A stretch of DNA of 26,259 bases, from positions 1 to 26,259 of IMG/VR virus record IMGVR_UViG_3300027833_001802, one strand, 5' to 3'. Position 1 is the first letter of the stretch; every line of letters starts with the position of its first letter. Under the pieces are notes generated by a model, which made no database searches, was not told the DNA's origin, and worked only from the letters and a program-made list of their open reading frames with translations. Positions 885 through 18,588 of this stretch are shown here, piece by piece. Both the position numbers and the translations under genes were made by a program. This DNA is from a virus.

Positions 885-2378
885 ATGACTAGTTTAACTG
901 ATACTAATGAAGATTATGCTGTATGGCTGCCTAGCATCAGTAATTTCTATAATAATATCATTACACGTTATCACCATCAGGGGGATGATTATTTTCCTCC
1001 TGAACGTATCCCTGTAGGTCTTGAGCATGGACTTGCAGGCTGTAATTTCTTAAAAGAAGATGATTCCTATTTCCAATATAAATGGGGATTGTATTCTATT
1101 GGACATGCACAGAGAGATGTGACTAAGACAGATAAGCGTGATATGATCATTCAACAACGTGATAGAAGTAAGACTTTTATCTTGGGTGATTCTGGTGGTT
1201 ATCAAATCGTAACTGGTGTTATCAAATGTGATTGGAATAACTTTAAGTCTGATGATAGTTTACGCCACCAAGTTTTGAATTGGCTTGAGCATACCGCAGA
1301 CTATAGTATGATTCTTGATGTTCCCACACTTGCAACATTGCCTCAGTATTCAGCAAAAAGTGGTATCAAAGACTTTGCACAGTGTCTTGATTATACCAAG
1401 TTCAATGCTGACTTCTTTGTAAAGAACAGAAAGTTTGAAACTAAATACTTAAACGTTATGCAAGGTATGAATGAGCAAGAATCTCGTGCATGGTATGATG
1501 CAGTTAAGCATTATCCATTTGAGGGTTGGGCATTTTCTGGCGCTTGTAAGTCAAACAAAATTGATATCTTATTGCGCAGACTAATTCAGATGCGTGACGA
1601 TAAATTACTTGAACGTGGTGAACGTGATTTAGTTCATGTACTGGGTGTAGGTAAACTTGAACTTGCTGTAGTTTATACCGCAATTAAACGTGCATTACGT
1701 GAGCATGTAAATCCTGATATGGAATTTACATTTGATGCAGCATCACCATTCATTGGTGCATCTAAGGGTGAAATTTATGCTGAATCGATATACAAGAGTG
1801 ATTCATTTAGGTTACAAACTGATCGATTCATTAATGATAAATCATTAAAGGGTAGTACAGTACGCTTACCTTATCGTTCCCCTATAGCAGATCGTTTAAC
1901 GATGGGTGATATGTGTTATCAAGGCGTAGGTGCACTTGATAAGAACGGACAAGTGTCAAAGACAAGTTGGGATTCATTGACTTATATGTTGATGCAAGGT
2001 CACAACACCTATTCTCATATTGAATCTATTCAACGAGCAAATCGCTTTGCAGATTCTACGATGCCATTAATTGATACAGATCATAACTTATGGTCGCAAG
2101 TAAGTGGCAAGGGCAAAGCACGACAGATTGATGATCATATCCCAGTAGAAGTGGTTTATATGATCAATTTCATTGAGAAATTGTTTAAGAGCGAAAACCC
2201 TATGACAATGATCAATGAGGCTGAGAGTTTGTTTGCTACATTTAGTAGACAGAAATCAGTAAAGAACAGTGACGTATTATTCACTAATCTATTTCAGATG
2301 GGAGATGATGAAACTGTAGACTCTGACGAGGAAATCGAACAAGATACCTCAGAAGAATTTTTAGAAACATTAACTTAA
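885..2378 (+). CDS. dpdA: DpdA-like / queuine tRNA-ribosyltransferase-fold base-exchange enzyme
   Basis: A 497-aa protein with the TGT fold. Enzymes of this family swap a guanine base for a 7-deazaguanine; TGT does this in tRNA and DpdA does it in DNA. Visible motifs are GDSGGYQ at residues 101-107 (the DSGG(F/Y)Q signature), ILDVPT at 143-148, FSGACKS at 217-223, HVLGVGK at 251-257 and FTFDAASPF at 281-289. D284 sits in the position of the TGT nucleophile. The CxCxxC zinc site of tRNA TGTs is absent, as expected for DpdA. The C-terminal 40 residues are very acidic. It starts three bases after the clamp gene, so the two are probably co-transcribed. FolE and QueE in the same window supply early pathway steps, which supports a DNA rather than a tRNA target. 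The exact product base cannot be told. Confidence 0.82.
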   Translation: MTSLTDTNEDYAVWLPSISNFYNNIITRYHHQGDDYFPPERIPVGLEHGLAGCNFLKEDDSYFQYKWGLYSIGHAQRDVTKTDKRDMIIQQRDRSKTFILGDSGGYQIVTGVIKCDWNNFKSDDSLRHQVLNWLEHTADYSMILDVPTLATLPQYSAKSGIKDFAQCLDYTKFNADFFVKNRKFETKYLNVMQGMNEQESRAWYDAVKHYPFEGWAFSGACKSNKIDILLRRLIQMRDDKLLERGERDLVHVLGVGKLELAVVYTAIKRALREHVNPDMEFTFDAASPFIGASKGEIYAESIYKSDSFRLQTDRFINDKSLKGSTVRLPYRSPIADRLTMGDMCYQGVGALDKNGQVSKTSWDSLTYMLMQGHNTYSHIESIQRANRFADSTMPLIDTDHNLWSQVSGKGKARQIDDHIPVEVVYMINFIEKLFKSENPMTMINEAESLFATFSRQKSVKNSDVLFTNLFQMGDDETVDSDEEIEQDTSEEFLETLT

Positions 2379-2656: not shown

Positions 2657-3061
2657 ATGACCACAGAAAACGAAGCAACAACAACAACAACAACAACAAA
2701 AACAGCAGCACCTTATGCTAGTACTGCAAAGCCTCACGCTCCTCGTCTACCATCACTTTATATTAGTGGGTATTACACATTACACGACATTAAGTTTGAT
2801 TTATTAAAAATCATTGAACCATATGATGGTTATATGTTCAATCGGAAAGATACTGAACATGTTCGTGGATTGTTTAATAACTTTCTAAGTGATCTAAGGC
2901 GTGCATACAAGTTGCGTGAATACAATATCTATACTACAGTGAAAGATAATTCTATTACATTCGATGTAACAGTAAAGATTCATAAAGATCGCGCAGTAAA
3001 GAAATTGAAAATCCACGTAGGTCGTTTGAACTACGTATCTCCAACTACAACTCACTCTTAG
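2657..3061 (+). CDS. unknown protein with threonine run and a sheath-like C-terminal pattern (134 aa)
   Basis: Not recognised with confidence. The N-terminal 30 residues are low complexity, including seven threonines in a row encoded by a CAA/ACA trinucleotide tract at 2676-2700. The remainder is a compact alpha/beta region: a long helix around residues 68-90 (VRGLFNNFLSDLRRAYKLRE), then strands YNIYTTVKDN and ITFDVTVKIH. This helix-then-two-strands pattern loosely resembles the C-terminal domain of contractile tail sheath proteins, but I cannot show homology. The gene ends directly before folE, whose ribosome site GGAG starts on its last base, so the two are translationally close. Confidence 0.65.
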   Translation: MTTENEATTTTTTTKTAAPYASTAKPHAPRLPSLYISGYYTLHDIKFDLLKIIEPYDGYMFNRKDTEHVRGLFNNFLSDLRRAYKLREYNIYTTVKDNSITFDVTVKIHKDRAVKKLKIHVGRLNYVSPTTTHS

Positions 3062-3070
3062 GAGTATAAG

Positions 3071-3757
3071 ATGTCAGTATCAAGTAAAATTAAACAACGA
3101 CTGACTGATGCCGAACATCGACATTGGGCTGGTGATAATATTTCAGAATATATCATGGATGGTGAACACGAAGAACTTATTGTAGAACTTACGGAAAAGT
3201 TTGAAGATGTTCTTAGTAGTTTAGTAATTGATATAGAAAATGATCCCAACTCACATGGTACTGGAAAGCGACTTGCTAAAATGTATGTTAAAGAATTAAT
3301 GAGCGGGCGTTATTATCCTGCTCCTTCTGCTACTGCATTTCCAAACAATGGTGGTGATCCGTTTAAAGGTATGTTAGTGGTACGATCTGAAATTAAATCA
3401 ATGTGTTCACATCATCATCAACCTGTAACTGGTGTTGTTTATATTGGCATCTTACCCGAAGATAAAGTAATTGGATTAAGTAAGTACACGCGCATTGCAC
3501 AATGGTGTGCACGGCGCGGTACACTTCAAGAAGAACTTGCAAATGATATTGCACGTGAACTTGAGAAGGCTACCGAGACTAAGCATCTTGCAGTATATAT
3601 TCAAGCCGAGCATGGCTGTTGTACCAATAGAGGCATTATGGCACATAGTTCGTTAACACAAACTACTGTACTTAAAGGTAACTTCTTTGAAAAAGCATCT
3701 GTAAAAGAAGAGTTCTTCGATAATATTAAAATGCAACAAGCACATGCACCGAGGTAG
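3071..3757 (+). CDS. folE: GTP cyclohydrolase I
   Basis: Converts GTP to 7,8-dihydroneopterin triphosphate, the entry step of both folate and 7-deazaguanine (preQ0) synthesis. The 228-aa protein matches the family over its catalytic half. It has MCSHHHQP at residues 111-118 with zinc ligands C112 and H115, VIGLSKYTRIAQ at 133-144, and AEHGCCTNRG at 179-188 carrying the third zinc ligand cysteine and the conserved Arg. Length is typical (E. coli FolE is 222 aa). GGAG at 3061-3064 supports the start. With the DpdA-like enzyme upstream and QueE downstream, the likely role is precursor supply for a modified guanine in phage DNA rather than folate synthesis, but the sequence alone does not exclude the latter. 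Confidence 0.93.
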   Translation: MSVSSKIKQRLTDAEHRHWAGDNISEYIMDGEHEELIVELTEKFEDVLSSLVIDIENDPNSHGTGKRLAKMYVKELMSGRYYPAPSATAFPNNGGDPFKGMLVVRSEIKSMCSHHHQPVTGVVYIGILPEDKVIGLSKYTRIAQWCARRGTLQEELANDIARELEKATETKHLAVYIQAEHGCCTNRGIMAHSSLTQTTVLKGNFFEKASVKEEFFDNIKMQQAHAPR

Positions 3758-3760
3758 ATT

Positions 3761-4330
3761 ATGAATAAAAAAGTATATTATAGTTGGGAAGACGTTGAGC
3801 ATATGCTTACGACAATCAATAATGAAATGGCTGCCGATGGTTGGCGCCCAGACTATATTGTGGGCATGTCACGTGGTGGTCTTGTACCAGCAGTGATGTT
3901 GAGTAACATGTCAGGTATTCCTATGCATCCATTAGATAAAGACGAGTCAAATCTTTGGATGTCTGAAGATGCATTTGGTTATGTATCTACGCCAGATTCT
4001 AATGAAATATCTGATGTATATGATGAAATAGTACCAGAGATTTCAGAAAATGTATTTGATCATCGTAAGAATATTTTGATTATTGATGATATCAATAATG
4101 TGGGTAGCACATTTGATTGGTTAAAATCTGATTGGACATCTTCGTGTATGCCTATGGATCATGATAGTTGGGATGATATTTGGCATGACAATGTTAGATT
4201 TGCATCATTAGTAGATAATGAAGCAAGTTTATTTGTCGATGTTGACTATGCAGCCGTAGAGATCAATAAAATAGAAAAGCCTGTATGGTGTGTGTTTCCT
4301 TGGGAAGCGGAGCGTGATTATGGCAACTAG
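3761..4330 (+). CDS. phosphoribosyltransferase-domain protein
   Basis: A 189-aa type I phosphoribosyltransferase (PRTase). The PRPP-binding signature is ILIIDDINNVGSTF at residues 105-118, with the two acidic residues D109 and D110, and the upstream loop VGMSRGGLVPA at 34-44 has the usual position. The hood region between them is acidic and divergent, so the base it uses cannot be named. The family moves phosphoribose between PRPP and a purine or pyrimidine base. The gene starts three bases after folE and has GAGG at 3751-3754, so it is probably co-translated with folE. A link to purine salvage for the deazaguanine route is possible but is only inferred from position. Confidence 0.82.
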   Translation: MNKKVYYSWEDVEHMLTTINNEMAADGWRPDYIVGMSRGGLVPAVMLSNMSGIPMHPLDKDESNLWMSEDAFGYVSTPDSNEISDVYDEIVPEISENVFDHRKNILIIDDINNVGSTFDWLKSDWTSSCMPMDHDSWDDIWHDNVRFASLVDNEASLFVDVDYAAVEINKIEKPVWCVFPWEAERDYGN

Positions 4331-4722: not shown

Positions 4723-5604
4723 ATGAAAACACCAATTAGATATGCAGGCGGCAAGTCTAAAGCATACAATATCATAACAGAACAACTACCGACATTATCC
4801 TTACCAGAAAGGATTATATCTCCATTTATGGGTGGTGGTAGTTTAGAATCTCGTTGGTCGTCGGAACTTGGTGTAGAAGTAATTGGTTATGATATATTTG
4901 ATGCACTTACTAATTTTTGGAATGTATTACTAACAGATTCAGATAGTCTTGCTGACAAACTTGCATTGTTGTCACCCACAAAGGACAAATACAAAGAAAT
5001 AAAAGAAATACTTATCCAGTGGGATTACACGCAAGAAATGTTGTCTGAATGGAAAACAGACTATTATAAAAGAGATAGCATTACGTTAGATAATGTAACT
5101 GCCGCAGCATATTATTATCATAATCATAATTTGTCATACGGACCAATGTACTTAGGTTGGATGTCTAAAATATATGAAAGTCAAGATAAATGGAACAATG
5201 CAATTAAACGTATAAGAGAATATAAGAATCCAAATCTTACAGTTCACAAGGGTACGTTTGATGAAGTGATACCAAATCACACGAATGATTTTTTATATCT
5301 TGATCCACCATATTATCTTGACAAAGATAAAGATAATAAAATGTTTAAGGGGTTATATCCGAATGCTAACATTGCAGTACATCATAAAGGATTTGATCAT
5401 GAACAACTGAGAGATTTATTGCATAATCATAAGGGTAATTTTATCTTATCGTATAATGATTGCGAGACAATTCGTGAATATTACAAAGATTTTGAAATAT
5501 TATATCCTAAATGGCATAACTCTTATGCGTATAATACTGATAAAGGCGGCAATGCTGAACGTAAATCAAAAGAAAGTCATGAAATTTTAATTTGTAAAAA
5601 ATGA
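4723..5604 (+). CDS. dam: Dam-type DNA N6-adenine methyltransferase (D12 class)
   Basis: A 293-aa alpha-class adenine methyltransferase. It transfers a methyl group from S-adenosylmethionine to adenine N6 in DNA. The N-terminal PIRYAGGKSK at residues 4-13 and PFMGGGSLE at 34-42 form the SAM-binding motif, IGYDIFDALTNFW at 54-66 is the following acidic loop, and LDPPYY at 193-198 is the catalytic DPPY. Length is near that of T4 Dam (259 aa) and E. coli Dam (278 aa). The target site cannot be read from sequence; GATC would be the family default. The gene sits between two copies of a 29-bp repeat, so it looks like a later insertion. Likely roles are protection from host restriction or marking of phage DNA. 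Confidence 0.9.
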   Translation: MKTPIRYAGGKSKAYNIITEQLPTLSLPERIISPFMGGGSLESRWSSELGVEVIGYDIFDALTNFWNVLLTDSDSLADKLALLSPTKDKYKEIKEILIQWDYTQEMLSEWKTDYYKRDSITLDNVTAAAYYYHNHNLSYGPMYLGWMSKIYESQDKWNNAIKRIREYKNPNLTVHKGTFDEVIPNHTNDFLYLDPPYYLDKDKDNKMFKGLYPNANIAVHHKGFDHEQLRDLLHNHKGNFILSYNDCETIREYYKDFEILYPKWHNSYAYNTDKGGNAERKSKESHEILICKK

Positions 5605-5626: not shown

Positions 5627-5655
5627 TTGACACGTAATGATTCTTGCTGTATACT
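5627..5655 (+). promoter_or_regulatory. sigma70-type promoter of the subtilase gene
   Basis: TTGACA at 5627-5632 and TATACT at 5650-5655 are separated by 17 bp, 47 bases before the start codon. It would allow the secreted protease to be made independently of the upstream genes by host RNA polymerase. Confidence 0.85.
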
Positions 5656-5702
5656 TAATGAGTAATGTAATTAAACAAAGTTAATTAAACCGTGAGAATA
5701 TT

Positions 5703-8462
5703 ATGATTAAATTCAAAAAAACAATAACTGCCTTATCAGTCGCAATGGCTATTGGCATTACAGCAGTCCCCACACAGGCGGAAGCAGCGCCTCGTTCAGT
5801 ATATGATTATGCGTCTAAAATCACCAATCATACTTCACAAGTCAAATTCATAAACAAGATGATTAGAAGTTATGCTCGTACCTCTAAAGTATACAGTAAT
5901 ATGATTGACAAATATGGCGCACGTTACGGACATTATTCTTGGTTCAAACCTATTATTCAAAATCATGCATTCTATCAAGCAGAAATGAAGAAATACACAA
6001 ACTTATTAAATTCTATTCAAGATGTAGTGGTAGCAGTAACCATTTTAAACACGGCTACTCATGTTGAACCATATGTACAAACTAGAAAGAGTAAGCCCGA
6101 ATTAATATCGTCTACTGATACAGTTGAACAAGAAACTGATGCGGGAATGATATATGAATATGCAGTACTAACTAAGGTAATGGAAACCATTACTACTGTT
6201 CGTACATTTGAAATGACTGTTACTGTCACATCGTTCAGCGATGGTTCAAAAGATAGTAGACGCAAAGCAAAACTAGTAGATACTAAGATTACGCCTAATC
6301 GTGAAACAACTCGTGATCGTGAATTAATTCGTAGTTATTCAGTTCCTGTAATTGAACCGCCAACACAAGTAGCAGACGTTGATACAGGTACAAAGACAGT
6401 TGCTATATTGACTGTTGAAGAATACCTTGCTCGTGATGATGTTGATTATGCTGTTACAGAAACTTATCGTCAAGCAGCATGGAATACAAGTGCAGGAACC
6501 AATCAAAATTATATTGATCGTGAAAGTGGTTTAGCGCCATATGCTAGTTCATTGGTAGATATTGGTGCACCACAGGCATGGGCACGTGGTTGGACAGGCA
6601 AGGGATCTATCATAGGTATTGTGGATTCTGGTATCGATTTAGATCATAGTGAGTTCGATGGGAAGATTATTGACGCACTATGTTTCACTCGTTCATGTGA
6701 TCTTGGTTACGAATCAGTAGACGATATTACACGAGTTAGTCACGGAACACACATTGCTGGTATTGCAGCAGCAAGTTTAGACGGAGTTGGTACAACTGGT
6801 GTTGCACCTGATGCAAAACTATTAATTGCAAAGGCAACAATAGGAACATATGGTTCAATCGATTTCGGTGCAATTGCAAAAGGTGTTGCATGGGCTGCAT
6901 CTAATGGTGCTGATGCAATCAACGTAAGTTCTAACTACAGGGTTGATAATACATACAAGAATAGTATTGTGTCGGTAGAGTCTGGTGTTTATCGTTCAAC
7001 CGATACACGTGGTAGAAATGGATTATCTTACGATAAAGATGGATATTCTTTTCTTCTAGTTGACACATTTGCCCAAAACTTAAAACAGGCAATGCAAGAT
7101 ACAGAAGCAGTGTTAGTTGCAGCAGCAGGCAACCAACGTTTAGATTACAGTACTTTCCCAGCACATTATGCAGTACTTGAAAATGAAGATGGTACATTAG
7201 CAATGGATGGTCGTGTGATCGTTGCTGGTAGTTATGACGTAAGAAATAATACAATTGCTAGTTATAGTAACAAAGCAGGCACTATGTGTTTCGATTTCAA
7301 TGAGACTACCAACAAGTGTAATACTGATTATCGCGTCAGTGATTTCTATTTGATGGCTCCAGGTTCGTCAGTTGCTTCAACTGATAAAGATGGTGAGTAT
7401 CGCTTGAATAGTGGTACATCAATGTCAGCCCCAATGATTTCGGGTGCTATTGCTGTGATCAAGCAGATGTGGCCCCACATGAAAGGTCAGAATCTTGCTA
7501 AGTTACTATTGAATACTGGCAATAAAGATATTCCTAACTATGATGTTAACGTGCATGGTCAAGGTCTACTAGATTTAGCAGCAGCAACTTCGCCACAAGG
7601 CGCGATTGGTATTCCTACAACAGGTCGTGTTGAAGGTAATAAGACTATCATGGCAAACGCTGGTACTACTAGTCTGTCAGGTGGTACTATCTCAGCATTC
7701 TCAACAATGATGGTAGTTGATGATTATGATCGTGACTTCTACGTAGATGGTAATGATTTAATTGGAAGCATTGATACTCGTACAGTTCACACAACCAAAG
7801 CAGCCCAAAGTGGGAACACTTTCGATCAGTATTCAGGCTATGCGAATGGCATTCGTTTATCTTCGCAGGGACTTGATTACAGTATCAGTGATGATGGTGG
7901 TCATGTTTCTGCTACAGTGAATAATGTTACAGTTGGTGCATTGGTTGAGAACAAAACATTCTTAGGAAATTATGCAGATAGTATGCTGATGAATGTCGAT
8001 GGTTCTAATACATTGTACATGGGTTATAATGCCGAATTTGAAACCAATAGTGTGACTTATTTTGGTGCAGCAAATGTTGGTGTAACCGCATTAAATGTTG
8101 ACAGTACAGCAATGATGAAATCTTCAAGTTCATTATTAAGTAACTCAGCATCACTAGGAGCAAAGGTTAAAACCGATATTGGTACATTCGGACTTGTTGC
8201 AGCACTGCCAGTAGCAATTTCAAATGGTTCGGCAAACTTTGATGTAGCATCATCAGTGTCAAACAGTGGTGAAATTTTGACTAATAATATGTCAAGTTCA
8301 TTAGCAGCAGATGCACGCGAATATAATATGGGAGCGTTCTATAATACTAGTCTAACCGAAGATGTTGGTCTTAAAATGTTTGCAGAAGCACGCAACAATT
8401 ACACAGGCACAGCAGGACTATATCAGATGGAAGCAGGTGTGACGTTAAATGGCACATTCTAA
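5703..8462 (+). CDS. secreted S8 (subtilisin-family) serine peptidase with autotransporter-like C-terminus
   Basis: A 919-aa protein with a signal peptide (basic MIKFKKT, hydrophobic core, likely cleavage after AEA near residue 28). Residues 30-270 are a pro-region of unknown type. The subtilase domain spans about 280-630 with the full triad: D308 in GIVDSGID, H347 in SHGTHIAG and S573 in GTSMSAP. The oxyanion Asn is N477 in AAAGN. Residues 640-919 alternate polar and hydrophobic residues and end in Phe, as outer-membrane beta-barrels of Gram-negative bacteria do, so the whole could be an autotransporter protease displayed on or released from the host surface. This topology is inferred. All catalytic residues are present, so activity is expected. 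It has its own promoter and a hairpin behind it, a self-contained accessory gene. A secreted protease is unusual for a phage; a tail-borne receptor-degrading role is less likely given the signal peptide. Confidence 0.88.
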   Translation: MIKFKKTITALSVAMAIGITAVPTQAEAAPRSVYDYASKITNHTSQVKFINKMIRSYARTSKVYSNMIDKYGARYGHYSWFKPIIQNHAFYQAEMKKYTNLLNSIQDVVVAVTILNTATHVEPYVQTRKSKPELISSTDTVEQETDAGMIYEYAVLTKVMETITTVRTFEMTVTVTSFSDGSKDSRRKAKLVDTKITPNRETTRDRELIRSYSVPVIEPPTQVADVDTGTKTVAILTVEEYLARDDVDYAVTETYRQAAWNTSAGTNQNYIDRESGLAPYASSLVDIGAPQAWARGWTGKGSIIGIVDSGIDLDHSEFDGKIIDALCFTRSCDLGYESVDDITRVSHGTHIAGIAAASLDGVGTTGVAPDAKLLIAKATIGTYGSIDFGAIAKGVAWAASNGADAINVSSNYRVDNTYKNSIVSVESGVYRSTDTRGRNGLSYDKDGYSFLLVDTFAQNLKQAMQDTEAVLVAAAGNQRLDYSTFPAHYAVLENEDGTLAMDGRVIVAGSYDVRNNTIASYSNKAGTMCFDFNETTNKCNTDYRVSDFYLMAPGSSVASTDKDGEYRLNSGTSMSAPMISGAIAVIKQMWPHMKGQNLAKLLLNTGNKDIPNYDVNVHGQGLLDLAAATSPQGAIGIPTTGRVEGNKTIMANAGTTSLSGGTISAFSTMMVVDDYDRDFYVDGNDLIGSIDTRTVHTTKAAQSGNTFDQYSGYANGIRLSSQGLDYSISDDGGHVSATVNNVTVGALVENKTFLGNYADSMLMNVDGSNTLYMGYNAEFETNSVTYFGAANVGVTALNVDSTAMMKSSSSLLSNSASLGAKVKTDIGTFGLVAALPVAISNGSANFDVASSVSNSGEILTNNMSSSLAADAREYNMGAFYNTSLTEDVGLKMFAEARNNYTGTAGLYQMEAGVTLNGTF

Positions 8463-8482
8463 TATAGAATAACAATAACAAT

Positions 8483-8503
8483 AGGGGACGCAATGCGTCC
8501 CTT
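8483..8503 (+). terminator. GC-rich hairpin after the subtilase gene
   Basis: Arms 8485-8491 (GGGACGC) and 8495-8501 (GCGTCCC) pair perfectly around a 3-nt loop, extended by one G-U and one A-T pair. It is much more GC-rich than its surroundings. Only a short T-poor tract follows, so termination may be weak, or the hairpin may protect the 3' end of the transcript. Confidence 0.6.
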
Positions 8504-8521
8504 AGTCATGAGAGCAGTACA

Positions 8522-8965: not shown

Positions 8966-9589
8966 ATGAAAATTAAAATTGGAAATTACCCTAGTCGGTT
9001 AACATGTGATATACATACAAGACATATGGAAAAGAAGTATGGGTTTATGTATGCTGATATTAATAACGCACCCACTCGCTTTGATAACTTTGTAGAAGTT
9101 ATTGAAGATAGGATGCAAAGTGTGTACAATGTGTTTAACTGGGTATGGTTTGATAGACGCAAGCGGAAGATTAATGTACACATAGACAGATGGGATACGT
9201 GGAGCATGGATAATACGATTGCTCATATTATCTTGCCTATGCTTGTGCAACTTAAAAGAGATAAACATTGCGCACCTAATGTGTCTAACGCAGATGTACC
9301 TAAAGAACTACGGGCTAGTAAGAAGCAGATCAAATCATATGGCAAAGGTAAAACAGATACAAAGTACTTTAAGCGTTGGGATTGGATACTAGATGAAATG
9401 ATTTGGGCGTTCAATCAAAAGTGTCGTGATGATTGGGAAAGTGATTACTACAATTATGAAGAAGATGATACAGCACAATTTGGATTGAAACTTGTATGGG
9501 AAGATAGAGAGGGACAAAACGCACATCAATTACGCATGTCAAATGGATTCCGTTTGTTTGGTGTATACTTTGAAAATCTATGGGATTGA
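8966..9589 (+). CDS. conserved phage protein of unknown function (207 aa)
   Basis: The function is not known. I recognise the type from other marine T4-like phages by the block DRWDTWSMDNTIAHII at residues 74-89 and the tryptophan-rich WILDEMIWAFNQ at 140-151, followed by an acidic Tyr/Glu/Asp segment. It has no signal peptide, membrane segment or recognisable catalytic motif. It lies directly between the cytidylyltransferase and gp4, and ends one base before the gp4 start. The setting beside a head-completion gene makes a virion or assembly role possible, but nothing in the sequence shows it. Confidence 0.78.
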   Translation: MKIKIGNYPSRLTCDIHTRHMEKKYGFMYADINNAPTRFDNFVEVIEDRMQSVYNVFNWVWFDRRKRKINVHIDRWDTWSMDNTIAHIILPMLVQLKRDKHCAPNVSNADVPKELRASKKQIKSYGKGKTDTKYFKRWDWILDEMIWAFNQKCRDDWESDYYNYEEDDTAQFGLKLVWEDREGQNAHQLRMSNGFRLFGVYFENLWD

Positions 9590-9590
9590 T

Positions 9591-9965
9591 ATGAAGAATA
9601 CAGCAATTAGGGGTCGTTATAAACCTAAGAATAAAAACAAGTATAATGGCAACATTAAAAAAATAACATATCGATCTATGTGGGAAAGGAGATTTATGTT
9701 ATATTGTGATCGTTCTCCCAACATTATTAAATGGTGTTCTGAAGAATTACACATCCCATATGTTTCCCCAAAAGATGATAAGTGGCATAATTATTATCCA
9801 GATTTTACTGTTTCTCTCGCTGATGGAAGAACGATAGTTGTTGAAATTAAGCCTCATTATCAAACTAATTGGAATGTGAATAAGTCAAAGTGGAAAGCAG
9901 CAAGAGTATACTGTGATGATAATTCATATGAATTTGTTGTATTAACTGAGAAGGAATTATTTTGA
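9591..9965 (+). CDS. 4: head completion protein / nuclease, T4 gp4-like
   Basis: A 124-aa homologue of T4 gp4, needed to finish DNA-filled heads before tail attachment. Shared features are GRYKPKNKNKY at residues 8-18, the block YRSMWERRFMLYCDRSPNI at 27-45, IPYVSPKDDKW at 55-65, YPDF at 69-72 and VVEIKPH at 83-89. Together E32, D71, E85 and K87 form a PD-(D/E)XK-type nuclease site like that of TnsA N-terminal domains. The ATG at 9591 follows the upstream stop immediately; an upstream in-frame ATG at 9492 would lie inside the previous gene and adds residues foreign to the family. T4 gp4 is somewhat longer (about 150 aa) because of a Lys-rich insertion that is reduced here. Confidence 0.88.
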   Translation: MKNTAIRGRYKPKNKNKYNGNIKKITYRSMWERRFMLYCDRSPNIIKWCSEELHIPYVSPKDDKWHNYYPDFTVSLADGRTIVVEIKPHYQTNWNVNKSKWKAARVYCDDNSYEFVVLTEKELF

Positions 9966-10485: not shown

Positions 10486-10761
10486 ATGAATAAAGAACAA
10501 ATAAAAGAATTGATGGTTATCACAGCAGAAGAATGTGGTGAATTGACACAGGCGTGTTGTAAGATATATCGCTGGGATATAGACAGTATCTATGCAGATG
10601 GTTCAAACAGACAAAGGTTGATTGATGAAGCAGGCGATGTTATGGCGATGATTTCTTTAATGGTTGAAAATGATCTATTGACAGAAAAAGAATTAGATGA
10701 TAGAATACATTATAAGAAATGTAAATTAAAAGAGTGGAGTAGTTTGTTTGATGAAACTTAG
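10486..10761 (+). CDS. mazG: MazG-like nucleotide pyrophosphohydrolase
   Basis: A 91-aa all-alpha NTP pyrophosphohydrolase of the MazG-like group, which splits (d)NTPs or (p)ppGpp-type nucleotides to monophosphates. The metal-binding motif is visible as AEECGEL at residues 14-20 (E15, E16, E19) and LIDEAGDVMAM at 45-55 (E48, D51), the EExxE...ExxD signature. Length fits single-domain phage MazG. The last codons overlap the start of queE by 11 bases, so the two are coupled. Phage MazG proteins are thought to lower an alarmone or aberrant nucleotides during infection; the substrate here is not known. Confidence 0.85.
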   Translation: MNKEQIKELMVITAEECGELTQACCKIYRWDIDSIYADGSNRQRLIDEAGDVMAMISLMVENDLLTEKELDDRIHYKKCKLKEWSSLFDET

Positions 10762-11635
10762 ATACAGTGAAGCATTTTATTCACTTCAAGGTGAAGGTAA
10801 ATTCGTAGGCGTACCTAGTGTATTCTTGCGTACTTTTGGTTGTAATTTTAGATGCAAATCGTTCTCAATGTCAAGTGAAGAACGTGAGGCTGTTAAAGAC
10901 GAGCGATACAACCCAGAAGTAAAGAAATTGATTGAAGATGGTGTACATATAAAGGCTACGCTATTAGAAGACTTGCCTATCATTCATACAGGATGTGACA
11001 CATACGCAAGCATCTATCCTGAGTTCAAGCATTTGATGTTTGATAGAACAGTAGATGAAGTAGTTGATCACTTATTATCGTTAACACCAAATGGTAAGTG
11101 GACTATGGATAACGGACAAGACATTCATCTAGTGATTACTGGTGGTGAGCCGTTGTTAGCATGGCAACGTATGTATGTGGAATTACTAGAACATGCACGT
11201 ATGAAAGACTTGTGTAATATTACGTTTGAAACAAATACAACGCAATTGTTACATGATGATTTCTATGAATACTTAGAAAATAAAGATACGTTAAAAGTTA
11301 CATGGAGTTGTTCACCTAAATTATCTGTTAGTGGCGAAGTGAGAGAAGATGCTATTAAGACTGATGTTGCAGCACAGTATATGAGTGTCGCAGATAGCAA
11401 TTTCTATCTCAAATTTGTAGTATCAAATGCAGCAGATGTTGATGAAGTAGATGAAGTAGTCGCAGAGTATCGCAAGAGTTATGTTAATTGTCCTGTGTAT
11501 CTGATGCCGATTGGTGGTCGTTCAGAAGAGTACAATCTATCAGTACAAGATATTGCACAGTTAGCATTAGACAAAGGTTATAGATTTAGCCCAAGATTGC
11601 ACATAGATTTATATGGTAATAATTGGGGCACATAA
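10751..11635 (+). CDS. queE: 7-carboxy-7-deazaguanine synthase, phage-type QueE
   Basis: A radical SAM enzyme that turns 6-carboxytetrahydropterin into 7-carboxy-7-deazaguanine, the third step of preQ0 synthesis. The N-terminus has SLQGEGKFVGVPSVFLRTFG (residues 11-30), the QueE signature, followed by CNFRC (C31, C35). The third cluster cysteine of the usual CxxxCxxC is replaced by Phe. A conserved-looking TGCDTYAS block supplies C82 after an insertion of about 45 residues. GGEP at 131-134 is the SAM-binding motif. At 294 aa it is longer than E. coli QueE (223 aa). GGAG at 10736-10739 supports the ATG at 10751; a TTG directly before it is an unnecessary extension. It lies between mazG and metK, and metK would supply its SAM cofactor. 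Confidence 0.87.
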   Translation: MKLRYSEAFYSLQGEGKFVGVPSVFLRTFGCNFRCKSFSMSSEEREAVKDERYNPEVKKLIEDGVHIKATLLEDLPIIHTGCDTYASIYPEFKHLMFDRTVDEVVDHLLSLTPNGKWTMDNGQDIHLVITGGEPLLAWQRMYVELLEHARMKDLCNITFETNTTQLLHDDFYEYLENKDTLKVTWSCSPKLSVSGEVREDAIKTDVAAQYMSVADSNFYLKFVVSNAADVDEVDEVVAEYRKSYVNCPVYLMPIGGRSEEYNLSVQDIAQLALDKGYRFSPRLHIDLYGNNWGT

Positions 11636-14960: not shown

Positions 14961-15515
14961 ATGAACTTATTACAGAATGTTACCTTTAAAGTTGCTCTAG
15001 TGATTTTAGTGGGACTCGTGTCATTTACCAACGTTACACATGCAGCAGTAATTGAAACTGCATCGACAAGTAACAGTACAGTTACAACAAACGGAACTAA
15101 TACAACAACAGTCAAAAGTCCACCACCTAGTGCAATCAGTCCAGGCATTAATGCTAGTAATAGTGATTTATGTACAGTAGGTGTATCAGGCGCAGTACAG
15201 ACACAGATACTTGGTATCAGTGGAGGCAACACAGTACGTGATATGAACTGTGAGCGATTAAAATTATCCAAAACAATTTATGATATGGGTATGAAGGTAG
15301 CCGCTGTTAGTGTTATGTGTCAAGACCAACGAATATTTGACGCTATGGAAATGGCGGGAACACCTTGTCCTTTCTTGGGAGCAATTGGCACAGAAGCCCA
15401 AGAGCAGTGGGATAGAAAGCCAGAATTGCAACCAGCAAATATAAAGGAAAACGAAAAAGATGATAATTTTAAAACAATTGGTGGTATTCTTTTGTTTCTG
15501 CTTTTTCTTATCTAA
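14961..15515 (+). CDS. secreted four-cysteine protein with C-terminal hydrophobic anchor
   Basis: A 184-aa exported protein of unknown role, of a type I recall from marine T4-like phages. The signal peptide is residues 1-28 (LLQNVTFKVALVILVGLVSF, cleavage near THA). After that comes a Ser/Thr/Asn-rich linker (30-55) and PPPSAISPG. The core at 65-150 has four cysteines (C71, C97, C120, C136), enough for two disulfides in the periplasm. The last 12 residues, IGGILLFLLFLI, are strongly hydrophobic and could anchor it in a membrane. That same DNA, in another frame, encodes the signal peptide of the next gene (overlap 15460-15515). GGAG at 14944-14947 supports the start. Confidence 0.78.
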   Translation: MNLLQNVTFKVALVILVGLVSFTNVTHAAVIETASTSNSTVTTNGTNTTTVKSPPPSAISPGINASNSDLCTVGVSGAVQTQILGISGGNTVRDMNCERLKLSKTIYDMGMKVAAVSVMCQDQRIFDAMEMAGTPCPFLGAIGTEAQEQWDRKPELQPANIKENEKDDNFKTIGGILLFLLFLI

Positions 15516-18500
15516 TAGCGTTTTCGCAGAAACTGACAATGGTGATGGTTCATTCACCACTGATCCAGGAACTACGGACTACGCTGATGGTTTTATAACA
15601 GGTAATTGTGCTGCTGGGGAAAGCAGTGCAATGGTGATCAGTAATACACATGTTTCGTTCGGCACATGTTATAACACATTCGCTATCAGTACAGCCATCA
15701 ATGAAGTACTCACAAACGAAGGAATCAGTGTAGACAAGATACATTATAAATGGTTATACATGAATGGTTGCTTTAATACATCAACTTCCGATGGTGTTCA
15801 AAAAGATTGGTGTAATCAAAATTTAGAAAATCGAGTAAACTTACAAACTGGTGAAATACTAGATAGCGAATGGGCTGAACAATTTGATATACTTACAGTT
15901 GAAGTAGAGATAACAGACTCAAGCGGTAATATAATTGAAACTAGGACATACTCATACGACACTTGGTATGATTGGATGAATCCAAACTCATATAGTGATA
16001 GTGAAGAAGCATCAGACATTGATGGTGATGGAGTGGTGGAATACTGGCAAGTAGAAGAAGATTTTATTCAACTGTATGATCACACACATGGTGTTGGTAG
16101 TATATACACACCAGAAAGTTTAGGTTCTGCAACATTTAGAGTATCATCAAAAGATGGTGGTATGTGGGATGGTAACTATGGTCCAAACATACGTTCTGGT
16201 GGTATATGGTTTACATATCGTGCTAATCCTTGTGCACAAACCGCAATGTACGATCCAAGTTGTTCGGGTTATGCAGAAGCAGTAGCAACATACGAATATG
16301 ACAACAATTGCAGTGCAAATGCTGCATATGATCCTGGTTGTCCTGGCTATGCTGACGCAGTTTATTATAATGATCAGTGCACCGCAGATGCAACATATGA
16401 TGCAGGTTGTCCTGGATATGCTGATGCGTATTATGATCAACAATGTAGTGCAAATAGTCAATACGATAGCGGTTGTTCTGGCTATGAGAATGAAAAATCC
16501 ACCGAACCAGGCATGAATGTGAGTGGACAAGGCAGTGATTATATATTTATATACAGAGGAAACAATCCGGATGTGTTTGACATACTAGTTGCGGACTTAG
16601 GTAATATTACAAACTGGGTGTGGGACTGCGAGAAAAGACATGGTGCAAGCGATGGTGACGAATGTCCTGGCACACTACACGGTAAAATCAAAGATGCAAC
16701 CCTTAATGGTGATTACTTATTTTTATATACAACTGACATAGATGATAACATTGTATGGCCAGATTCTGGCAGATGGTATTCATTTGCTGAGTTTGATTAT
16801 TGGACAGAACAATGTTCGACAGATGCAACTTGGCATGATAGTTGTAGTGTATACACTTCACAGCAATATGACGAAAGTTGCAGTGTTGACCCAACATACG
16901 ATGCAAAATGTCCTGGATATGCGTCAGCGCATCACGATCAACAATGCAGTGCTAATGCGATGTATGATTCTAGTTGTCCAGGATATTCAAGTGCATATGA
17001 GAGTTACCAGTGTGAACAGAATTCATTATACAGCAGCAGTTGTAGCGGATATGAAGAAGCATATTATAATTACCAGTGCAGTGCCAATTCATTGTATGAC
17101 AGTGCTTGTCCTGGATATGATACAGCATATTACAACCAACAGTGCAGTTCTAATGCATTATATGATAGTGGTTGTGCAGGGTATGATACGGCATATTACA
17201 ACCAACAGTGCAGTTCTAATGCATTATATGATAGTGGTTGTGCAGGGTATGATACGGCATATTACAACCAACAGTGCAGTGCAGATGCATTATATGATAG
17301 TGGTTGTCCAGGATATGAAACAGCATATTACAACCAACAGTGCAGTGCAGATGCATTATATGACAGCGCATGTCCAGGATACGCAACAGCGTATTATAAT
17401 CAACAGTGTACAATAAGTCCGTTGTATGATAGTGGGTGCATAGGATACGATTCAGCATATCTTGGACAACAGTGTACAATAAGTACATTATACAGTACAG
17501 AATGTCCAGGATATGAGACAGCATATATGGATTACCAGTGCGGACTTGATGCTACTTACGACAGTTCATGTACTGGATACGCAGATGCTTATTTACTACA
17601 GCAATGTAATCTAAATACATTATATGATATGCGTTGTACAGGATATGCTGATGCATATTTTGATCAGCAATGCTTACAGAATCCACAATATGATACACAG
17701 TGCAATGGGTATGTTGCAGAAGTAACCGAATCACCAACATCAACTCCCATAGTAGAAGGAACAGGAACTGGTGATGCAGTGATTGATAGTATTATTGCAG
17801 CACCAATTATCATCGTTATGCCAATAGAAATAGTACAACCAGCACCAGTTGAAGTTGAACCAATAGTTGCAGCGCCTGTTCCCATAATACCAACGATACA
17901 ACTAGAAATAGCAACGGGTGCACCAGCCGAAACAACAGAACAATTGGAAATTGCAATTGAGCAAGAGATTGCAGCAGAGTTGAATATTGAAGTAGATGTC
18001 GAAGTAACCGAACCAGAAGCAGTGGTAGAGACAATTGAAGAAGAAATAGTCGATGAACCCATTGTTGAAGAAGTTGTTGAAGAAGTTGTTGAAGAAGTTG
18101 TTGAAGAAGTTGTTGAAGAAGAAATAGTTGAAGAAGTTGTTGAAGAAGTTGTTGAAGAAGTTGTTGAAGAAGTTGTTGAAGAAGAAATAGTTGAAGAAGT
18201 TGTTGAAAAAGAAGTAATTGAGCCTGTAGTTAAGAAGAAAGTAGTTAAGAAGATGACAAAGGCAGAAAAACAGAAAGCCAAAGTGAAGAAGATGAAAGAA
18301 ATTATTAAAAAGAAGTTAGCAAAATTAGCAATTGTAATGGGTGAAGCACAGTCATTGTCTGATCAGAGAGCATTACAAGCACAAATAAGTGCATTGATTA
18401 ACTTTGTTCCAGGCTTTAGTGCTTACGGACAACGAGCAATCCCCGGAGTTGATTTTTACACATCAACAGGTATTTACAAAGATAAAAAAGTTCCTGAGAA

Positions 18501-18588
18501 CCAACGAGGATTATTAAATGGTCTTGCAAGTCAGATACTTCATGAGAAGATGGTAGACCAACAATACGAGAAAATAGAAGATGAGTGA
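15460..18588 (+). CDS. large secreted cysteine-repeat protein with EEVV stalk (1042 aa)
   Basis: Not a characterised family, though similar Cys-repeat proteins occur to my memory in marine T4-like phages. The order is: signal peptide 1-23 (cleavage near VFA); a unique N-terminal domain to about 255 with six cysteines after the signal peptide; four cysteine repeats (256-345); a unique insert (346-449); fourteen more repeats to about 755; a Pro/Val/Ile-rich linker; a Glu/Val repeat (863-918); a Lys-rich segment; and a compact C-terminal domain ending near MVDQQYEKIEDE. The repeat is 22 residues, roughly QCSANALYDSGCPGYxTAYY, with two cysteines per unit, probably disulfide-bonded in the periplasm. 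AAGGA upstream supports the ATG at 15460. Its last eight bases overlap the next gene. A surface, lysis or superinfection role is possible but not shown. Confidence 0.85.
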   Translation: MIILKQLVVFFCFCFFLSNSVFAETDNGDGSFTTDPGTTDYADGFITGNCAAGESSAMVISNTHVSFGTCYNTFAISTAINEVLTNEGISVDKIHYKWLYMNGCFNTSTSDGVQKDWCNQNLENRVNLQTGEILDSEWAEQFDILTVEVEITDSSGNIIETRTYSYDTWYDWMNPNSYSDSEEASDIDGDGVVEYWQVEEDFIQLYDHTHGVGSIYTPESLGSATFRVSSKDGGMWDGNYGPNIRSGGIWFTYRANPCAQTAMYDPSCSGYAEAVATYEYDNNCSANAAYDPGCPGYADAVYYNDQCTADATYDAGCPGYADAYYDQQCSANSQYDSGCSGYENEKSTEPGMNVSGQGSDYIFIYRGNNPDVFDILVADLGNITNWVWDCEKRHGASDGDECPGTLHGKIKDATLNGDYLFLYTTDIDDNIVWPDSGRWYSFAEFDYWTEQCSTDATWHDSCSVYTSQQYDESCSVDPTYDAKCPGYASAHHDQQCSANAMYDSSCPGYSSAYESYQCEQNSLYSSSCSGYEEAYYNYQCSANSLYDSACPGYDTAYYNQQCSSNALYDSGCAGYDTAYYNQQCSSNALYDSGCAGYDTAYYNQQCSADALYDSGCPGYETAYYNQQCSADALYDSACPGYATAYYNQQCTISPLYDSGCIGYDSAYLGQQCTISTLYSTECPGYETAYMDYQCGLDATYDSSCTGYADAYLLQQCNLNTLYDMRCTGYADAYFDQQCLQNPQYDTQCNGYVAEVTESPTSTPIVEGTGTGDAVIDSIIAAPIIIVMPIEIVQPAPVEVEPIVAAPVPIIPTIQLEIATGAPAETTEQLEIAIEQEIAAELNIEVDVEVTEPEAVVETIEEEIVDEPIVEEVVEEVVEEVVEEVVEEEIVEEVVEEVVEEVVEEVVEEEIVEEVVEKEVIEPVVKKKVVKKMTKAEKQKAKVKKMKEIIKKKLAKLAIVMGEAQSLSDQRALQAQISALINFVPGFSAYGQRAIPGVDFYTSTGIYKDKKVPENQRGLLNGLASQILHEKMVDQQYEKIEDE
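16225..16491 (+). repeat. first array of 22-26-residue cysteine repeats (4 units)
   Basis: Four diverged units each fit the pattern CxxxxxYDxxCxGY. They begin at NPCAQTAMYDPSC and end at GCSGYENE. A unique segment of about 105 codons separates them from the second array. Confidence 0.85.
16807..17724 (+). repeat. second array of cysteine repeats (14 units of about 66 bp)
   Basis: Fourteen head-to-tail units follow. The middle ones are nearly identical at DNA level; two consecutive 66-bp units across about 17135-17266 appear identical. Outer units are more diverged, the usual sign of recent unequal exchange or slippage in the centre. Confidence 0.9.
18061..18213 (+). repeat. nested Glu/Val repeat (12-bp unit inside a 63-bp superunit)
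   Basis: A 12-bp unit encoding VVEE is repeated and grouped into 63-bp superunits at 18061-18123 and 18124-18186, with a partial third to 18213. It keeps frame throughout. The acidic run is followed directly by a Lys-rich stretch. Confidence 0.9.

What the first reader, a model, noticed from the sequence alone, without database searches (positions are those of the whole stretch)
5627..8503. Secreted autotransporter-like subtilase as a self-contained phage cassette
A 919-aa S8 protease with signal peptide, intact Asp-His-Ser triad and a C-terminal beta-rich part ending in Phe sits between its own consensus promoter and a GC-rich hairpin. Phages seldom carry secreted proteases of this size. Expression from a host-type promoter would place it on or outside the infected cell, where it could cleave surface receptors to block superinfection, degrade competitor proteins, or release nutrients. 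The function is open.
Basis: partly seen in the sequence, partly recalled or inferred. Interest (0 to 1): 0.72.

Follow-up and report, generated by a model that had tools for sequence, protein, structure and literature searches.

The report
Phage-encoded outer-membrane-anchored subtilase family
This phage gene encodes a protein-cutting enzyme with an export signal and a predicted outer-membrane barrel, and about fifty distinct large uncultivated phages carry relatives, so many phages probably put their own protease on the envelope of the bacterium they infect.

Summary
ORF 5703-8462 (919 aa) has a Sec-type signal, an S8 subtilase domain with intact Asp308/His347/Asn477/Ser573, and a C-terminal domain ending in Phe. 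AlphaFold2 models that domain at pLDDT 88, and the best structural matches are outer-membrane beta-barrels, including the EspP autotransporter domain (Z 9.8). The sigma-70-like promoter is real and is conserved upstream of 34 of 45 homologues (0.4% in shuffles). The downstream hairpin is real, but its T-tract lies on the minus strand, so it is not a good terminator for this gene.

"Self-contained cassette" is wrong in spirit. Fifty distinct phage homologues (33-100% identity) form a family under purifying selection. They mostly sit in one syntenic slot, between phosphoribosyltransferase/FolE and QueE-like genes, on contigs up to 302 kb. Some relatives carry a lipobox (CGGGGG) and up to seven copies of a ~107-aa module, resembling the lipidated SphB1/NalP. 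Bacterial S8 proteins share the same barrel family, which is not detectably PF03797.

Best explanation: an autotransporter-like protease, probably made early, that is displayed at the outer membrane and shaves surface proteins. The anchoring is well supported by prediction. The substrate and purpose (receptor removal, nutrient release) are inference.

The parts
5627..5655 (+). sigma-70-type promoter, TTGACA-17-TATACT (11 of 12)
   Evidence: the same promoter with at most 1 mismatch upstream of 34/45 homologues vs 0.4% of shuffles and 10.6% of other genes
5703..8462 (+). phage OM-anchored subtilase, 919 aa
   Evidence: 50 distinct phage homologues; dN well below dS
5703..5789 (+). Sec-type signal sequence, about residues 1-29 (no lipobox)
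   Evidence: sequence pattern; same pattern or a lipobox in nearly all complete homologues
5802..6020 (+). N-terminal helical segment, residues 34-106
   Evidence: AlphaFold2 secondary structure, (pLDDT about 64-88 by block)
6042..6341 (+). one copy of an extended beta module, residues 114-213, here called the stalk; up to 7 copies of about 107 aa in relatives
6561..7592 (+). S8 subtilase domain, residues about 287-630; D308 (6624-6626), H347 (6741-6743), N477 (7131-7133), S573 (7419-7421)
7593..7850 (+). linker, residues 631-716, with conserved MMVVDDYDRDFY motif
7851..8459 (+). predicted outer-membrane beta-barrel, residues 717-919
   Evidence: AlphaFold2 pLDDT 88.1 pTM 0.79; VIA-align and Foldseek matches to OM barrels; strand alternation 35.7 vs shuffles 17.4 sd 3.6
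8430..8459 (+). C-terminal beta-signal-like strand, ending GVTLNGTF
   Evidence: G at -8 in 43/51, hydrophobic at -7 and -5, F at -1 in 50/51
8482..8504 (+). GC-rich hairpin after the gene, not a clear terminator on this strand
3071..3757 (+). syntenic neighbour, GTP cyclohydrolase (FolE-like), in 39/50 distinct loci
3761..4330 (+). syntenic neighbour, phosphoribosyltransferase-like, in 43/50 distinct loci
10748..11635 (+). syntenic neighbour, radical-SAM QueE-like, in 43/50 distinct loci

Best explanation
The gene encodes an outer-membrane-anchored subtilisin-type protease that works like a subtilase autotransporter. Step 1 (inferred from the conserved promoter): host RNA polymerase transcribes it from a near-consensus sigma-70 promoter, probably early in infection. 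Step 2 (signal pattern): the Sec machinery exports it to the periplasm. Step 3 (structure prediction and beta-signal): the C-terminal ~200 residues are inserted in the outer membrane by the host BAM machinery as a beta-barrel. Step 4 (inferred from architecture): the subtilase and the N-terminal beta module are presented on the outside of the infected cell. Step 5 (least certain): the protease trims or sheds host surface proteins, most simply phage receptors or other adhesins, which would limit superinfection and loss of progeny to already infected cells and debris.
For: Subtilase domain and triad intact and invariant. C-terminal model of high confidence whose best structural matches are outer-membrane barrels, including EspP. 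Strongly alternating strands. Terminal Phe/beta-signal pattern in 50/51. Nearly all complete homologues carry a Sec-like signal or a lipobox; the lipobox CGGGGG forms parallel the lipidated subtilase autotransporters SphB1 and NalP, which process surface proteins (PMC9977779; PMC9289746). Dedicated promoter in 34/45. Purifying selection (window vs L030 dN 0.10, dS 0.60). In the 192-kb relative the gene (about 118-121 kb) lies tens of kilobases from the head, portal and baseplate genes, which are within the first 51 kb, so a virion role is less likely. The same barrel is fused to S8 proteases in bacteria (hhalign 99.5%, E 3.7e-23).
Against: No relation to the PF03797 translocator is detectable from the phage sequences (1/43 members at E 0.003; hhalign probability 0.9%), and only a weak one from the bacterial relatives (48.8%). 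Outward display of the protease is not shown; the barrel could anchor it facing the periplasm. Strand number and barrel closure were not measured on coordinates. The promoter argument for early timing is by analogy: the split between the structural region (1/33 genes with such promoters) and the rest (24/174) was not significant (p 0.14). The host and any substrate are unknown.
Confidence: 0.6

Rival explanations
1. Nutrient acquisition: the phage places a protease on the host surface so that peptides from outside (or from neighbouring lysed cells) feed the infected cell, an auxiliary metabolic function.
For: The gene sits in a region of metabolic genes (FolE, QueE-like, MazG-like, and by eye SAM synthetase). 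The 192-kb relative also encodes a TctA transporter subunit.
Against: No peptide transporter or peptidase partner was seen. The TctA family is for tricarboxylates. Conservation of an anchored rather than released enzyme fits poorly with broad nutrient release.
Confidence: 0.15
2. Processing protease for a phage-encoded secreted protein, as SphB1 and NalP process other exported proteins; a candidate partner is the secreted Cys-repeat protein at 15460-18588 with its small partner at 14961-15515.
For: Both partners have signal-like N-termini and occur in protease-bearing phages (7 of 17 records). Subtilase autotransporters mature other surface proteins (PMC9289746).
Against: Ten of 17 protease-bearing records lack a match, including the 202-kb and 302-kb contigs (all are possibly incomplete).
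Confidence: 0.15
3. Lysis or envelope-disruption protease: the barrel anchors it facing the periplasm and it weakens outer-membrane to cell-wall links at the end of infection.
For: Export signal and OM anchoring are equally consistent with a periplasm-facing enzyme.
Against: Host-type promoter of the kind expected for early genes; no lysis gene recognised beside it; the variable N-terminal modules and lipid-anchored forms look like surface display.
Confidence: 0.1
4. Virion component (tail or baseplate protease) with an unusual export signal.
For: Proteases occur on some virions (general knowledge); not excluded here, as no proteomics is available.
Against: Signal or lipobox in nearly all complete homologues, a membrane-barrel domain with a beta-signal, and a locus far from structural genes in the 192-kb relative.
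Confidence: 0.05

Closest known systems
Subtilisin-like autotransporters (Group 15 in PMC9289746: NalP, SphB1, EprS, Ssp, Fusolisin)
   Same: Export signal (lipidated in SphB1 and NalP, as in about ten distinct phage relatives), S8 protease passenger, C-terminal outer-membrane beta-barrel with a terminal aromatic residue.
   Different: No detectable PF03797 similarity in the phage proteins; no ~200-aa beta-helix between protease and barrel; an extra N-terminal helical segment and beta module (up to 7 copies in relatives); encoded by phages at a conserved phage locus.
Bacterial S8 proteins with the same C-terminal barrel (loci L098-L116, L024, L100)
   Same: Clear sequence homology over the C-terminal domain (E down to 1.6e-22). 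L100 has a lipobox CGGGGGG and is sister to the phage clade; L024 is 44% identical over the whole length.
   Different: On bacterial contigs; found in about 5% of sampled genomes of that bacterial class; the N-terminal modules were not compared beyond L024.
phrog_3677 phage proteases and Bacillus phage SP-15 protease
   Same: S8 catalytic domain, phage-encoded.
   Different: Similarity covers only the catalytic region (39% of the query, 27% identity for SP-15).
Uncultured Caudovirales proteins A0A6J5TBB6 and A0A6J5L9S5
   Same: The C-terminal barrel model matches them (TM-score 0.72 and 0.67); the first is annotated Peptidase S8/S53. Likely members of the same family already in UniProt.
   Different: The annotation shown names only an S8/S53 domain or a repeat domain, with no mention of a barrel or export.

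Membership tests
Peptidase family S8 (subtilases) | Pfam PF00082 match above cut-off | tested here: met
   118.5 bits vs cut-off 21.8
Peptidase family S8 (subtilases) | Asp-His-Ser triad with oxyanion Asn | tested here: met
   D308, H347, N477, S573, invariant in 45/45
Peptidase family S8 (subtilases) | Subtilisin fold | tested here: met
   Foldseek hits are subtilisins, best E 8.4e-17, TMt 0.85
Type Va autotransporters | N-terminal Sec signal | tested here: met
   Sequence pattern only, conserved in nearly all complete homologues; no signal-peptide program available
Type Va autotransporters | C-terminal outer-membrane beta-barrel | tested here: met
   By prediction:
Type Va autotransporters | C-terminal beta-signal ending in an aromatic residue | tested here: met
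   F in 50/51, W in 1
Type Va autotransporters | Translocator homologous to PF03797 | tested here: inconclusive
   1/43 members at E 0.003; hhalign 0.9% for phage, 48.8% for bacterial relatives
Type Va autotransporters | 12-stranded barrel with pore-spanning helix | tested here: inconclusive
   About 12-13 longer strands listed by DSSP; coordinates not inspected
Type Va autotransporters | Passenger crosses the outer membrane | not testable with these tools
   Needs cell fractionation or surface labelling
Group 15 subtilisin-like autotransporters | Protease domain followed by ~200-aa beta-helix before the translocator (PMC9289746) | tested here: not met
   About 85 residues between S8 domain and barrel; extra domains are N-terminal instead
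SphB1/NalP-type lipidated subtilases | Lipobox cysteine at the end of the signal | tested here: not met
   Window protein has a non-lipid signal; about ten distinct relatives do have a lipobox Cys, most followed by Gly runs
Virion structural proteins | Found in purified virions | not testable with these tools
   No proteomics; locus is far from head, portal and baseplate genes in a 192-kb relative

The most novel reading that the evidence does not exclude
A widespread lineage of large uncultivated phages encodes its own surface-displayed, stalked, autotransporter-like proteases, built on a barrel family distinct from PF03797, to remodel the infected cell's surface early in infection, for example by shaving off phage receptors; phage and bacteria have exchanged the gene (L024 nests inside the phage clade).
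Probability: 0.3. Interest if true: 0.8.

Novelty: new variant of a known kind. Interest (0 to 1): 0.6.

Why it matters
Superinfection-exclusion proteins known to me are mostly small membrane proteins or receptor blockers. A conserved phage-encoded protease anchored in the outer membrane would be a different way for a phage to alter the surface of its host, and its conservation in about fifty distinct large phages suggests a real benefit. It gives a testable candidate, an enzyme that can be expressed on its own, for phage control of the infected-cell surface. It also adds an S8-linked outer-membrane barrel family, shared by phages and bacteria, that lies outside the standard autotransporter model.

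Tried and rejected
(1) Recent, self-contained moron: rejected because of 50 distinct homologues, conserved synteny and purifying selection. Two genes near it do look recent and were found only in the window and its near-identical contig: the D12 methyltransferase at 4723-5604 and the TnsA-like endonuclease at 9588-9965. (2) Hairpin as terminator for this gene: rejected on orientation of the T-tract. (3) Universal gene of every phage with the neighbouring phosphoribosyltransferase: rejected; only 6 of 26 wide-flank loci found with that gene carry the protease. (4) Strict coupling to the secreted Cys-repeat protein: 7 of 17 records only. (5) Sequence match of the barrel to solved structures: none. 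(6) T4-like late promoter TATAAATA: not enriched upstream of genes in the structural region (2/33 vs 9/174). (7) Literature: searches for phage-encoded autotransporters found nothing relevant; the library holds only open-licence papers, so this is weak evidence of absence. (8) A repeated-DNA search in the N-terminal region of the window gene found no repeats, in line with one module copy. (9) Searches with the full-length protein or model against the PDB returned only subtilisins, because that domain fills the list. (10) A tape-measure family search in seven records was uninformative.

Full report
WHAT IS THERE. The window is a 26,259-base IMG/VR fragment. The ORF at 5703-8462 encodes 919 aa and is preceded by TTGACA-17-TATACT at 5627-5655. 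Pfam finds only Peptidase_S8, residues 299-608, E 4.4e-34. The triad D308/H347/S573 and the oxyanion N477 are intact and invariant in 45 of 45 full-length phage homologues (this count includes L024, which is on a bacterial contig).

IT IS A FAMILY, NOT A CASSETTE. Three scans of IMG/VR gave ten full-length relatives first, then more distant ones. In all there are 94 protein copies, 51 distinct, 50 of them on phage contigs, at 33-100% identity on contigs of up to 302,518 bases. In the phage isolate collection only the catalytic region finds weak matches. The gene lies in a conserved neighbourhood: of 50 distinct loci, 43 have the phosphoribosyltransferase-like gene, 43 the QueE-like gene and 39 the FolE-like gene nearby, nearly all on one strand. 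In a search centred on the phosphoribosyltransferase, only 6 of 26 loci with wide flanks have the protease, so it marks a subset of the phages with that neighbour. Selection is purifying: window vs L030 dN 0.10, dS 0.60; window vs L029 dN 0.18, dS 0.85.

PROMOTER. With the same rule, 34 of 45 homologues have a promoter with at most one mismatch to TTGACA/TATAAT within 120 bases; mononucleotide shuffles give 0.4%, other genes of the same loci 10.6%. In the 192-kb relative such promoters sit mostly outside the structural region (24 of 174 genes vs 1 of 33, p 0.14, not significant). That region was identified by major head, portal and baseplate matches, and the protease lies well away from it. 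Early expression is therefore an inference.

THE C-TERMINAL DOMAIN. Modelled alone from 43 homologues it reaches pLDDT 88.1 and pTM 0.79, mostly antiparallel strands. The full-length model is much weaker (62.3). The top matches by VIA-align are outer-membrane barrels: V. cholerae OmpT Z 11.8, OmpG 11, CymA 11.2, FapF 10.6, EspP autotransporter domain 9.8; the Foldseek list is likewise made of outer-membrane proteins, with low TM-scores. Hydrophobic alternation along predicted strands is 35.7 against 17.4 (sd 3.6) in within-strand shuffles, none of 2000 as high; the strands come from the model, so this is supportive rather than independent. The last residue is Phe in 50 of 51 and Trp in one, with Gly at -8 in 43, the pattern expected of a BAM beta-signal (established knowledge).

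RELATION TO KNOWN AUTOTRANSPORTERS. A profile of this domain finds matches in 19 of 369 genomes sampled from one bacterial class, 18 besides the genome of L024; the ORFs I examined are S8 proteins with the same C-terminal family. Profile comparison of phage and bacterial sets gives 99.5%, E 3.7e-23; phage against a set of PF03797 domains gives 0.9%, bacterial against PF03797 48.8%. The barrel family is thus not assignable to PF03797 by sequence. In the review of autotransporters, translocators correspond to PF03797 and group 15 subtilases have a protease followed by a beta-helix (PMC9289746). Here the extra domains are N-terminal, so I do not file it in group 15, though it probably works in a similar way.

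TWO N-TERMINAL TYPES AND A REPEATED MODULE. The window's group has a non-lipid signal, a helical segment and one extended beta module. About ten distinct relatives have a lipobox, most followed by Gly runs (LTACGGGGG), reminiscent of the lipidated subtilases SphB1 and NalP (PMC9977779), and module copies spaced about 107 residues apart, seven in L084. That this module is a stalk is my inference.

EVOLUTION. In a maximum-likelihood tree of the protease-barrel part, the phage sequences form one large group, with the bacterial lipoprotein L100 as sister and the bacterial L024 nested inside (supports 97/90, 100/99, 96/97). L024 is on a 59.5% GC contig carrying ordinary bacterial-looking genes (annotations by eye: rmlA, rmlD, TamA-like), is 44% identical over the full length and has GC like its flanks. 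This implies gene exchange between phage and bacterium, with a phage-to-bacterium direction favoured by the tree. The root is a midpoint and several bacterial branches are long, so this is moderate evidence.

MECHANISM. Shown or strongly predicted: intact protease, exported, barrel-anchored in the outer membrane, with its own host-type promoter. Inferred: early timing and outward display. Least certain: purpose. I favour surface shaving that reduces re-adsorption of phages (about 0.3); nutrient release and processing of another phage-secreted protein are the main rivals. The overall confidence of 0.6 refers to the anchored, surface-displayed protease, not to the purpose.

LIMITS. Metagenomic fragments only; host unknown; no signal-peptide program; barrel coordinates not inspected; promoter and hairpin calls are pattern matches; open-access literature only.

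Noticed in passing
window 14961-15515 and 15460-18588: A small exported-looking protein (184 aa, hydrophobic C-terminus) overlapping a 1042-aa protein with a signal sequence, many ~20-aa Cys repeats (QCSxNxxYDSxCxGYxxAY) and a Glu/Val-rich tail. Conserved together in 7 of 17 protease-bearing phage records; no hit to the 1042-aa protein in the phage isolate collection. Function unknown.
   Followed up: partly
L251:1395-2840 and 2853-3914 (192-kb relative): A phage-encoded TctA-family transporter subunit (E 4e-85) next to an exported-looking protein with no Pfam hit, possibly the solute-binding partner.
   Followed up: partly
L250:6619-10234, minus strand: Four tandem paralogues of about 293-312 aa starting MKIxICxSGxTRxWxxxPSxNL; the two tested have no Pfam match.
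   Followed up: no
window 4723-5604 and 9588-9965: D12-class adenine methyltransferase and a TnsA-like endonuclease were found only in the window and its near-identical contig (L002/L025), unlike their neighbours; likely recent insertions on either side of the protease.
   Followed up: no
window 885-2378: 497-aa protein 32% identical over its full length to an unannotated protein of Pseudomonas jumbo phage PA5oct; possibly a DpdA-like base-modification enzyme in the FolE/QueE neighbourhood (the name is my guess).
   Followed up: no
L024 (contig CAKZQE010000165.1): A bacterial MAG contig with ordinary chromosomal-looking genes carries a full-length homologue (44% identity) that nests inside the phage clade, near a TamA-like gene: a possible domesticated phage protease.
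   Followed up: partly
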